From assembly GCF_900095385.1 (NCBI RefSeq), contig NZ_FMID01000019.1, positions 1 through 60,198 of the forward strand: DNA of 60,198 bases. Direction: 5' to 3'. Positions 40,735 to 52,186 of this stretch are shown here, piece by piece (the first letter of the stretch is position 1; the number at the start of each line of letters is the position of its first letter). Origin of the DNA: Methanoculleus chikugoensis (GTDB taxonomy: Archaea; Halobacteriota; Methanomicrobia; Methanomicrobiales; Methanoculleaceae). Below the pieces are notes generated by a model. It made no database searches. It saw nothing but the letters and a program-made list of their open reading frames with translations, and was not told the origin of the DNA. Both the position numbers and the translations under genes were made by a program.

Positions 40735-40764
40735 GAAGATCGCCGTTGGGGACACGTCCTTGGT

Positions 40765-41050
40765 CGACCGTGCGCACAAGCATTCACCGCAGCATCCCTC
40801 CTCCACCCCGCAACCCCATGGGCGCCGAACGTCCACGGTAAGTCTGCTCCCTTCCGGGCCTGAACCGGTACCCGCGGCAAAAGGTCGCCGCCCCCTCCGG
40901 GACTTTGATCCCTCTCCGCCGACCTCATGGGACGAGGTTTCTCCGTCGGGACGCAGAGGTTCCTGCAGGCCGCTGCGGCCTTCCTCAGACTTCGCCCCCC
41001 GCTGACGGCGGTTTCGGGTAACAAGTGACGCCGAGCCACCCGGGCTAGTC
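40765..41050 (-). ncRNA. ffs: Archaeal signal recognition particle RNA (7S RNA)
   Basis: The minus strand carries the hallmark SRP helix 8 element CAGGCCCGGAAGGGAGCAGA (about 40844-40863) that binds SRP54. The 5' end ACTAGCCCGGGTGGCTCGGC near 41050 matches archaeal 7S RNAs, and long complementary stretches such as GCCGCAGC with GCTGCGGT build helix 5. A TTTTTATCCC element at 41073-41082, inside the 3' end of the methyltransferase gene, sits at promoter distance. The 3' end is not well fixed (about 20 bases either way). Confidence 0.93.
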
Positions 41051-41067
41051 CCCGTATATACTGGAAT

Positions 41068-47204: not shown

Positions 47205-48854
47205 TCACGTTCCGGCCTCCGCCGCCCGGATCGCCTCCATGAGCGACTCCCAGACGACCGGTGTTGCGAAGAATATATTGTCGCGGCCGATCTCCGCCGC
47301 CGCTCCGGTCTCTACAAGCCCTGCAAGGAACTGGGGATCGACCTCGGCGAGGATGAGCCGGTTCCCCCCGACCGCGACCCGCCGGGCGTAGCGCTCCAGC
47401 ATCCGGAAAAGCCCGGTTCCGGCCTCGACCCTTCCCCGGAGAGCGAGGATCACGACGGCGCCCTCTGATCCCTCGGGGGATGGGAGCGACCGCTCGATCG
47501 CCCTGAGGGTTGCGAAGTAGACGCTCCCGGAGATCGAGAGCACGGTGAGGGTGTCGTCCACAAGCCGTCCGGGCGCCGGTTCTTCCCGGAACATGCCTCC
47601 TCCGACCGGGACGAGGCGGACGACGGAGGCCTCCCGGGTGGAGGTGACGAGGTAGATCGCAAGCGAGAGGAGGACCCCGACGTAGATGCTGTACTGGAGC
47701 GGGAGGACCTGGGTGGAGATGAAAGTGGCGAGCATCGCCCAGCGTCCCGGGCGGGAGTACTTCCAGATGCAGGCGATCTCGTGAGGCTGGTAGATGAGTT
47801 CGGCCCCGATGAGGATCAGGATGCCGGCGAGGGCCGGGAGCGGGATCTGTTCCGCGAGCGGTCCCGCGAGGACGACGACCACCCCGACGAGGGCGCCCGA
47901 GATGAGGTTTGCCGCCCGCGTCTCTGCCCCTGCGGCGACGTTGAGCGCCGTCGCCGAGAGCGACCCGCTTGCCGGTGCGCACTGGAGGAAGCTCGCGAGG
48001 ATGTTCGTCACCCCCTGCCCGGTGAAGTCCCGGTTCACGTCGGCGATGGTGCCGTCGGGCTCGGGGATCGCCTCGGTGACCCCGACGGCCATCACGAGCC
48101 CGATGATGGCGAGGGCGAGCGCCGGGACGAGGAGGCCGGGAATGAGGGCGAGATCGGGGATGACCGGGGCCGGGAGCCCGGCAGGGATGGTGCTGATGTC
48201 GCCGACGAGCGCGACGTCCGGGAATACGGCCGGAACGAGGAGGGTTGCGACGACGATCGGGAGGAGGAGGGCGACGGAACGGAGGTGCGGCACCCGCCGG
48301 AAGGCGAGGACGAGGACGATGGTCACGAGCCCGACGGCGAGCGCCTCGGGCTGGATATCGCCTGCGTGGAGGAGGAGGTCGGGGATGGCGAGGATCTGGA
48401 TTGCGTCCCGCGGGAGCTGGTGGCCGGTGAGGTTCCCGAGCTGGCCGAGGACGATGAGGAGCGCTGCTCCCGTGACGAACCCGGTGAGGACGGCGTTGGA
48501 GATGAACCGGGTCAGGCTGCCTGCCCGGAGAAGCCCGAACCCAAGCTGGAAGGCCCCGACGAGGATGGTCAGCACAAAGAGGGTTGCCGGGACGTCGGCC
48601 TCCGGGACCGGGGCGAGGACAGAGAAGATCGAGACCGCGAGGACGTTTGAGAGCATCACCTTGAGGTAGGTGGAGCCGGTGAGGAACGCCCCGATCGCCG
48701 TCGAGAACGCGGCGGTGTAGAGGCCGTAGATCGGGTTGATCCCGGCGACGAGGGCGAACCCCATCGCCTGCGGGATGCCGACGAGGGCGGTGGTCGTCCC
48801 GGCGGCGAGGTCGGCGGGGAGGCTCTTCCTCCAGTTCGTCTCACCCGCGGGCAT
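47205..48854 (-). CDS. SulP family anion transporter with STAS domain
   Basis: A 549-residue permease: MPAGETNWRKSLPADLAAGT, the hallmark AGINPIYGLYTA region, about ten to twelve membrane helices, and a C-terminal STAS domain (about 435-549; TVLSISGSVYFATLRAIE and VVILALRGRVEAGTGLF). SulP proteins move sulfate, bicarbonate or dicarboxylates. The STAS part may control activity, as in other members. A TATA box (CCTATATCC, 48878-48886) sits 28 bases upstream, a leaderless arrangement. Confidence 0.94.
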   Translation of the reverse strand: MPAGETNWRKSLPADLAAGTTTALVGIPQAMGFALVAGINPIYGLYTAAFSTAIGAFLTGSTYLKVMLSNVLAVSIFSVLAPVPEADVPATLFVLTILVGAFQLGFGLLRAGSLTRFISNAVLTGFVTGAALLIVLGQLGNLTGHQLPRDAIQILAIPDLLLHAGDIQPEALAVGLVTIVLVLAFRRVPHLRSVALLLPIVVATLLVPAVFPDVALVGDISTIPAGLPAPVIPDLALIPGLLVPALALAIIGLVMAVGVTEAIPEPDGTIADVNRDFTGQGVTNILASFLQCAPASGSLSATALNVAAGAETRAANLISGALVGVVVVLAGPLAEQIPLPALAGILILIGAELIYQPHEIACIWKYSRPGRWAMLATFISTQVLPLQYSIYVGVLLSLAIYLVTSTREASVVRLVPVGGGMFREEPAPGRLVDDTLTVLSISGSVYFATLRAIERSLPSPEGSEGAVVILALRGRVEAGTGLFRMLERYARRVAVGGNRLILAEVDPQFLAGLVETGAAAEIGRDNIFFATPVVWESLMEAIRAAEAGT

Positions 48855-48877: not shown

Positions 48878-48886
48878 GGATATAGG
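48878..48886 (-). promoter_or_regulatory. TATA box of the SulP gene
   Basis: CCTATATCC on the minus strand centred 28 bases before the ATG at 48854. Confidence 0.55.
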
Positions 48887-48949
48887 TTGCCCTGACGGCC
48901 GAGTATCCGGGATCTCCGGATAGTTGATGGAGGGCGGGCGAACGTCCCG

Positions 48950-49016
48950 GGGCTCGTGGTCTAGCTGGTTATGACGTCGCCCTGACAAGGCGGAGTTATA
49001 CCACTAGACCATGGGC
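48950..49016. pseudogene. Head-to-head tRNA 5' halves (tRNA-Val GAC / tRNA-Asp GTC-like)
   Basis: Plus strand from 48950: acceptor GGGCTCG, a D-arm with GTCTAGCTGGTTATGAC, anticodon stem TCGCC, loop CTGACAA (anticodon GAC) and GGCGG. That is a normal tRNA-Val 5' half, but the T-arm and 3' acceptor strand are missing. Minus strand from about 49016 reads GCCCATGGTCTAGTGGTATA and runs into the same anticodon arm, where GAC read backwards is GTC (Asp), again with no 3' half. Arms GGTCTAG (48958-48964) and CTAGACC (49004-49010) are exact inverses. I read it as a tRNA-derived palindrome or broken tRNA, not a working tRNA. Confidence 0.55.
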
Positions 49017-49185: not shown

Positions 49186-49563
49186 ATGAACGAGAGAGAG
49201 CCCGGCGAGGGACGCGGCCGCCGCGGGCGGGGGCGCCCCCGGGTCCGCCGGAGGATCGGGAACCAGGGGGCGTTCCGCTGTTTCGGCCCGCTCTGCGGGG
49301 CGCCCGACGAGTTCGTCGTCGTCCTGCCCGAGGAGGTGGAGGCGCTGCGGCTCGTCGATCTCCAGGGGCTTGAGCAGGAAGAGGCGGCCGCCGCTCTCGG
49401 CGTCTCCCGAAAGACCCTCTGGCGCGACCTCCACGAGGCGCGGGCGAAGGTCGCCGATGCCCTGGTGCACGGGAAGACGATCCGGATCGTCGGGTGCGGC
49501 CGCGAGCGGGAGGAGGGGTGCCCGGAGGACGAGGATCCCTCCTTCGATCCGGCGTCCGGGTGA
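49186..49563 (+). CDS. DUF134 family HTH protein
   Basis: A 125-residue DNA-binding protein of the DUF134 (UPF0251) family. It opens with a basic Arg/Gly-rich segment (GRGRRGRGRPRVRRRIG), then FRCFGPLCG, and a sigma-like helix-turn-helix (EEVEALRLVDLQGLEQEEAA and ALGVSRKTLWRDLHEARAKV). The acidic tail has CGREREEGCPEDED. In other organisms these genes often neighbour NifX/NifB-like iron-sulfur genes, which here lie 9 kb away. A T8 run follows the stop by 27 bases. Confidence 0.92.
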   Translation: MNEREPGEGRGRRGRGRPRVRRRIGNQGAFRCFGPLCGAPDEFVVVLPEEVEALRLVDLQGLEQEEAAAALGVSRKTLWRDLHEARAKVADALVHGKTIRIVGCGREREEGCPEDEDPSFDPASG

Positions 49564-52111: not shown

Positions 52112-52186
52112 TGGGCCCGGAGGGATTCGAACCCACGACCGCCCGGTTATGAGCCGGGCGCTCTGACCGGACTAAGCTACGGGCCC
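52112..52186 (-). tRNA. tRNA-Met (CAT)
   Basis: Full cloverleaf on the minus strand: acceptor GGGCCCG pairs with CGGGCCC, D-arm GCTTAGTCCGGTCAGAGC, anticodon stem CCCGG/CCGGG with loop CTCATAA (anticodon CAT), T-arm GTGGGTTCGAATCCCTC with one mismatched pair, discriminator A. CCA is not encoded. It may be elongator Met or the CAT tRNA that is modified to read Ile AUA. Confidence 0.92.

What the first reader, a model, noticed from the sequence alone, without database searches (positions are those of the whole stretch)
48950..49016. Two tRNA 5' halves meet head to head and share one anticodon arm
The plus strand gives a normal tRNA-Val(GAC) 5' half through the anticodon arm, then stops being tRNA. 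The minus strand from 49016 gives a D-arm of another tRNA that runs into the same anticodon arm as GTC. Neither has a T-arm or 3' acceptor strand. GGTCTAG/CTAGACC are exact inverses, so the locus is a palindrome built from tRNA. Options: relic of an inverted duplication, an integration scar, a split-tRNA-like 5' half, or a hairpin RNA. Split tRNAs are known in a few archaea, not, to my knowledge, in methanogens.
Basis: partly seen in the sequence, partly recalled or inferred. Interest (0 to 1): 0.6.

Follow-up and report, generated by a model that had tools for sequence, protein, structure and literature searches.

The report
Conserved hairpin made from half tRNA
A palindrome made from the front half of a valine tRNA gene is not a broken or split tRNA but what is left, in this genome, of a non-coding hairpin element that sits beside the same transporter gene in most sampled species of the methanogen genus Methanoculleus, probably as an undescribed structured RNA of unknown use.

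Summary
48950-48995 is 96% identical to the 5' half of the genome's own tRNA-Val(GAC), and 48989-49012 pairs back onto it as one long hairpin (-45.5 kcal/mol, z -5.2). The genome has 44 intact tRNAs, including Val GAC, CAC and TAC and Asp GTC, so this is not a split tRNA. It is not private to this assembly: the element lies upstream of, and divergent from, the same SulP gene in 21 of 35 Methanoculleus genomes, some of them closed. Up to three tandem units occur; this window holds one unit, left after deletion between two tRNA halves. Hairpin arms are 71-86% identical across species, while the flanking bases are at about 33%. A covariance model finds related hairpins in other families, beside toxin-antitoxin, restriction or Wadjet-like genes. 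Every non-Met tRNA fragment found (43 of 43) is a 5' half; classical integration scars nearby are 3' tRNA-Met pieces. The tRNA-sense strand folds better than its complement in 21 of 27 cases, which suggests selection on an RNA. Compensatory changes are few, and no promoter, terminator or transcript was shown. Best reading: a tRNA-Val-derived structured non-coding RNA family absent from Rfam, function unknown. Relic array and recombination site remain open rivals.

The parts
48950..48995 (+). tRNA-Val(GAC)-type 5' half: acceptor 5' strand, D-arm and anticodon arm
   Evidence: 96% over 46 nt to the genome's own tRNA-Val(GAC), contig C37; 25.3 bits with Rfam tRNA, below the 29 cut-off
48957..49012 (+). 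hairpin: 5' arm 48957-48981, 7-nt loop 48982-48988 (CTGACAA), 3' arm 48989-49012
   Evidence: fold; conserved in 27 aligned units; covariance model R1 scores 80 bits here
   Evidence: 18 of 19 nt like tRNA-Gly(TCC) positions 7-25; an inverted Val half fits nearly as well
48902..48925 (.). palindrome P0 (TATCCGG-N5-CCGGATA core), part of the element in most one- to three-unit loci
   Evidence: present in G003, G005, G006, G007, G009, G010, G011, G024, G025, G027, G033; no strand bias in folding, 5 vs 6
48880..48886 (-). TATA-like box, inferred to serve the SulP gene
   Evidence: about 29 nt upstream of the ATG; kept in genome G016, which lacks the element
47205..48854 (-). SulP-type sulfate permease gene, divergent neighbour of the element
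   Evidence: PF00916, E 1.3e-66; syntenic in relatives
49186..49563 (+). DUF134 / sigma-70 region-4-like gene on the other side of the element
   Evidence: PF02001, E 3.4e-22; in some relatives 1-8 kb of cargo lies between it and the element

Best explanation
The locus is the one-unit form of a conserved non-coding element of Methanoculleus. A tRNA-Val 5' half, or a tandem array of such halves, gained a 3' arm complementary to itself, so each unit folds into a long hairpin instead of a cloverleaf. The fullest layout seen is P0 palindrome - unit 1 - linker A - unit 2 - linker B - unit 3 (genome G024). Recombination between the near-identical tRNA halves deletes units; here the front of unit 1 was joined to the back of the last unit (shown by comparison with G003). 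The most likely role is a small structured RNA transcribed in the tRNA sense, between the divergent SulP and DUF134/DUF5320 genes. A mimic carrying a D-arm and anticodon arm but no T-arm, so unlikely to be aminoacylated, could bind tRNA-handling proteins or regulate neighbours. The anatomy, conservation and deletion history are shown; transcription and target are inferred.
For: Same element at the same locus in 21 of 35 genus genomes. Arms 84.5% (5') and 71% (3') identical across 27 units, loop 44%, flanks 31-33%. In several species pairs the element is as conserved as or more conserved than SulP coding DNA, e.g. G033/G011 90-100% against 83%. Pairing kept at 88% of cells against 30-49% for slid structures, with 7 pairs changed on both sides. 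GU:AC cells 45:14 in A1. The tRNA-sense strand is more stable in 21 of 27 units (sign test p 0.006, Wilcoxon p 8e-4), while a perfect palindrome shows no bias. Linkers A and B are homologous (59% within G024; shuffles mean 37%, max 51%). No Rfam family other than tRNA fits.
Against: Shuffling leaves compensatory change only modestly above chance: 93 of 500 shuffles reach the number of pairs changed on both sides. Counted as events on a tree, WC->GU (24) does not exceed WC->AC (22). The strand test ignores relatedness of the sequences. No promoter of its own or T-run terminator was found by eye; the only clear TATA box serves SulP. Several genomes keep SulP without a recognisable or intact element. 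Genomes G028 and G026 carry the hairpin flipped relative to SulP. No expression data were available.
Confidence: 0.5

Rival explanations
1. Relic: the remains of a tandem tRNA(-Val) array brought in by a mobile element, now decaying; palindromes persist through template-switch correction and occasional conversion by the three real tRNA-Val genes, without function.
For: Units are lost freely (1-3 copies) and some genomes lack the element or carry a decayed one. An array with Val, Asp, Glu and Ile pieces lies in an ORF-free block in G002, 86% identical in part to one in another family, G043. Units 1 and 2 keep acceptor-like closing pairs.
Against: Arms stay 71-86% identical while flanks are at chance; strand bias in folding; only 5' halves survive, 43 of 43, whereas random decay should also leave T-arm halves; linkers and P0 are conserved without any donor tRNA copy.
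Confidence: 0.27
2. DNA-level site: a recombination or attachment site, e.g. left by an integrase that targets the 5' half of a tRNA as pTN3-type integrases do in Thermococcales, with crossover at the anticodon loop.
For: Archaeal pTN3-like integrases use the 5' half of tRNA genes as attB and the anticodon loop can be the overlap region (PMC8371274). The element sits at the edge of variable cargo, loses units and was once inverted. Related hairpins lie beside defence or toxin genes.
Against: No intact tRNA-Val and no integrase at the locus; the genome's two tyrosine integrases are on other contigs. Cargo has no second copy at its far end. Loop length varies 6-7 nt and its sequence is not kept. 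A DNA site gives no reason for the tRNA-sense strand to fold better.
Confidence: 0.15
3. 5' half of a split tRNA that is trans-spliced to a 3' half elsewhere.
For: A normal 5' half ends at the anticodon arm.
Against: tRNA-Val GAC, CAC and TAC and tRNA-Asp GTC are all intact. Split tRNAs form a bulge-helix-bulge at the junction (PMC3218864); here the following bases pair with the same half. No lone 3' half of Val was seen among held sequence.
Confidence: 0.01
4. Assembly artefact (collapsed or chimeric repeat).
For: Only this genome has this exact unit 1/last-unit junction, and the halves are near-identical repeats.
Against: The element with the same flanks occurs in independent assemblies, including one-contig genomes G003 and G019; one-unit forms occur in G005, G010, G021 and G033 too.
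Confidence: 0.03

Closest known systems
tRNA-Val genes of Methanomicrobiales
   Same: 5' arm is nearly identical (96% here) through D-arm and anticodon arm
   Different: no T-arm; the 3' part pairs back on the 5' half; anticodon loop not kept across species
Split (trans-spliced) tRNAs of Nanoarchaeum and Desulfurococcales (PMC3218864)
   Same: a tRNA 5' half ending at the anticodon arm
   Different: intact copies exist, no bulge-helix-bulge junction, no partner half
Integration scars and att sites in tRNA genes, including pTN3-like 5'-half sites (PMC8371274)
   Same: tRNA fragment centred on the anticodon arm, at the edge of variable DNA
   Different: no intact tRNA, integrase or second att copy; tandem hairpin units with conserved linkers
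Degenerate tRNA arrays of mobile elements
   Same: several tRNA-like pieces in tandem; a mobile block with Val, Asp, Glu and Ile pieces in G002/G043 holds a related hairpin
   Different: only 5' halves, folded into long hairpins, held at one chromosomal locus across a genus
Tandem or palindromic repeats of the REP/MITE type (from memory)
   Same: short palindromes in non-coding DNA
   Different: one locus per genome, not dispersed

Membership tests
split tRNA | no intact gene for the same isoacceptor elsewhere | tested here: not met
   intact Val GAC, CAC, TAC and Asp GTC
split tRNA | bulge-helix-bulge junction formed with the other half | tested here: not met
   bases after the anticodon arm pair with the same half; definition from PMC3218864
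functional tRNA gene | cloverleaf above the Rfam/ARAGORN cut-offs | tested here: not met
   25.3 bits vs 29; ARAGORN none
classical tRNA integration scar | intact tRNA at one end of an island and a displaced fragment, usually the 3' end, at the other | tested here: not met
   fragments are 5' halves; no tRNA-Val or integrase at the locus; the 3' preference is stated in PMC8371274
pTN3-like 5'-half attachment site | cognate integrase and recombination between copies | tested here: inconclusive
   no integrase on this contig; units do recombine, but simple deletion between repeats explains that
structured non-coding RNA | conserved base pairing with compensatory change | tested here: inconclusive
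   88% of cells paired, 7 pairs changed on both sides, only modestly above shuffles
structured non-coding RNA | strand-specific folding | tested here: met
   21 of 27 units fold better on the tRNA-sense strand; not corrected for phylogeny
structured non-coding RNA | transcription | not testable with these tools
   no RNA data held
known Rfam family | match above gathering score | tested here: not met
   no family besides sub-threshold tRNA

The most novel reading that the evidence does not exclude
Methanomicrobiales carry a family of RNAs built from tRNA 5' halves (Val in Methanoculleus; Val with Asp, Glu and Ile pieces in a mobile, defence-linked block) that keep the D-arm and anticodon arm but not the T-arm, and act as tRNA mimics, for instance as bait for anticodon nucleases or for tRNA-modifying enzymes.
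Probability: 0.12. Interest if true: 0.8.

Novelty: new variant of a known kind. Interest (0 to 1): 0.5.

Why it matters
tRNA genes are often copied and broken, but a tRNA half reshaped into a hairpin and kept at one place across a genus would be an example of a tRNA turned into a different RNA in archaea. It gives an explicit RNA model and named species in which to look for the transcript. It also adds a caution: tRNA 5' halves in archaeal genomes need not be split tRNAs or integration scars.

Tried and rejected
Split tRNA and Asp(GTC) partner: rejected. Misassembly: unlikely. Dispersed repeat: only one locus in the genome besides real tRNAs. Phage or plasmid origin of the unit: no match in the phage or plasmid collections. 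The one IMG/VR contig (L177) with the 24-nt half carries a normal tRNA-Val-tRNA-Phe pair. Leader RNA of the downstream gene: by eye, an AT-rich promoter-like stretch lies between hairpin and DUF5320 in the G030 group, and the DUF134 upstream region is conserved even in G016, which lacks the element. Tree-counted GU versus AC events gave no strand preference, so the strand argument rests on folding energies and cell counts only. Literature searches for a described element of this kind found none.

Full report
What is in the window. The window is contig 31 of a 2.65-Mb, 99.7% complete genome. The genus is Methanoculleus: two of its congeners in the set match named Methanoculleus contigs by sequence and contig length (FWC-SCC3 54,398 bases and Afa-1 678,369 bases). 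At 48950-48995 the plus strand matches the genome's own tRNA-Val(GAC) at 96% over positions 1-46. Past the anticodon arm the tRNA ends. The next 24 bases (48989-49012) pair back onto the D-arm and anticodon arm as a single long hairpin: -45.5 kcal/mol, 0 of 200 shuffles as stable. The tRNA model scores below its cut-off and ARAGORN finds no tRNA there. The minus strand looks like another tRNA half because it is the inverse of one; the best match is the D-arm of tRNA-Gly(TCC), with an inverted Val half close behind, not Asp.

Not a split tRNA. The genome has 44 tRNA genes above the Rfam cut-off, with intact Val GAC, CAC and TAC and Asp GTC. Split tRNAs are joined through a bulge-helix-bulge formed between the two halves (PMC3218864); here the sequence is complementary to the same half.

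A genus-wide element. The same hairpin lies between the divergent SulP and DUF134 (or DUF5320) genes in many congeners. A covariance model built from 16 units finds it at this locus in 21 of 35 Methanoculleus genomes (tRNA-Val genes themselves score much lower). Genome G016 shows the empty site: same SulP TATA box and DUF134 upstream region, no element. G008, G013 and G029 keep SulP with another neighbour and no element, and G009 keeps P0 with a decayed unit. G020 has a diverged copy without SulP.

Unit structure and history. Many loci have two units about 130-140 nt apart and G024 has three. The linkers between units are homologous to each other: the two linkers of G024 are 59% identical, against a shuffled mean of 37% and maximum of 51%. 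G006 and G011 keep the linker-A type; G003, G027 and G007 keep the linker-B type. This fits an ancestral array P0-unit 1-A-unit 2-B-unit 3 that loses units by recombination between tRNA halves (inference from these alignments). The window is the extreme case: its left part aligns with the left of unit 1 of G003 (91%) and its right part with the last unit and beyond. Upstream units fold with an outer acceptor-like stem (GGCTC/GAGCC), the last unit as a tight hairpin.

Selection. Across 27 units the 5' arm is 84.5% identical, the loop 44%, the 3' arm 71%, and the flanking bases 31-33%, which is chance level. In several species pairs the element is as conserved as or more conserved than the adjacent SulP coding DNA; part of that could be recent exchange. 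Pairing is kept in 88% of cells, against 30-49% in slid controls, but compensatory changes exceed shuffles only modestly.

RNA or DNA. The tRNA-sense strand folds better than its complement in 21 of 27 units (p 0.006; Wilcoxon p 8e-4), while an exact palindrome of tRNA-Val shows no such bias. Non-Watson-Crick cells are mostly G-U, not A-C, in that sense (45:14). Both point to selection on an RNA. Against this, a parsimony count of changes on a hairpin tree gives no excess of G-U events (24 vs 22), the strand test does not correct for relatedness, and no promoter of its own was recognised. P0 shows no strand bias (5 vs 6) and may be a protein-binding site.

Not a classical integration scar. A census of tRNA-like fragments over the larger held loci found 43 Val, Asp, Glu, Ile and Gly pieces; every one is a 5' half by midpoint (one runs on to position 66). 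The only 3' pieces are three tRNA-Met fragments, consistent with classical scars of the tRNA-Met gene nearby. [quoted passage not shown] pTN3-like enzymes are the exception and use the 5' half (PMC8371274). The locus has no intact tRNA-Val and no integrase; the genome's two tyrosine integrases are on other contigs. A pTN3-like relic therefore remains a rival.

Relatives outside the genus. The model also finds the hairpin in three genomes of another family (G044, G039, G059) and in G043. In G044 it lies 31 bases after an XRE-ImmA/PIN-DUF3368 operon; in G039 beside a transposase-like ORF and an EcoO109I-type restriction-modification pair. In G002 and G043 it lies in a non-coding block of about 640 nt, 86% identical between these two distant genomes, with 5' halves of tRNA-Asp, Glu and Ile in both orientations; an Asp half pairs with an inverted copy about 600 nt upstream in G002 and about 375 nt upstream in G043. 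Neighbours in G002 are a radical-SAM gene (Pfam) and large ORFs that read to me as a TcmP-like and a Wadjet JetC-like protein; the last two gave no Pfam match and were not tested further.

Conclusion. The anatomy, the conservation and the loss of units are shown. The role is inferred: most likely a structured RNA made from a tRNA half (0.5), otherwise a decaying tRNA array (0.27) or a recombination site (0.15).

Noticed in passing
L157:2180-3320 (G002 contig 15) and L156:5725-6400 (G043 contig 27): ORF-free block, 86% identical over 637 nt between two different families, made of 5' halves of tRNA-Val, Asp, Glu and Ile in both orientations, beside a radical-SAM gene and a large Wadjet JetC-like ORF (G002) or XRE-ImmA (G043). 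Looks like a mobile array of tRNA halves.
   Followed up: partly
L153:4808-6447 (G044): XRE-ImmA/IrrE gene, PIN-DUF3368 gene and then the tRNA-half hairpin 31 bases downstream, on the same strand.
   Followed up: partly
L103:3600-11300, L104:5010-9660, L107:2700-9150, L110:6470-11280 (relatives of the window): Between the hairpin element and DUF134 several species carry 4-8 kb of variable cargo: surface/S-layer-like proteins and toxin-antitoxin-like genes (MNT-HEPN-like, RelE-like); names by eye.
   Followed up: partly
L109:5073-5100, L115:7992-8013, L159:7337-7366: 3' fragments of tRNA-Met(CAT), the tRNA at window 52112-52186, consistent with classical integration scars at that gene.
   Followed up: no
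window 48902-48925: Palindrome TATCCGG-N5-CCGGATA conserved upstream of the element in many species, with no strand preference in folding; possible operator.
   Followed up: partly
L158:6560-6628 and L159:6511-6579 (G028, G026): The hairpin is flipped relative to SulP in these two genomes: the tRNA half lies on the SulP strand.
   Followed up: partly
window 40746-41055, minus strand: Archaeal SRP RNA, 176 bits; ordinary.
   Followed up: no
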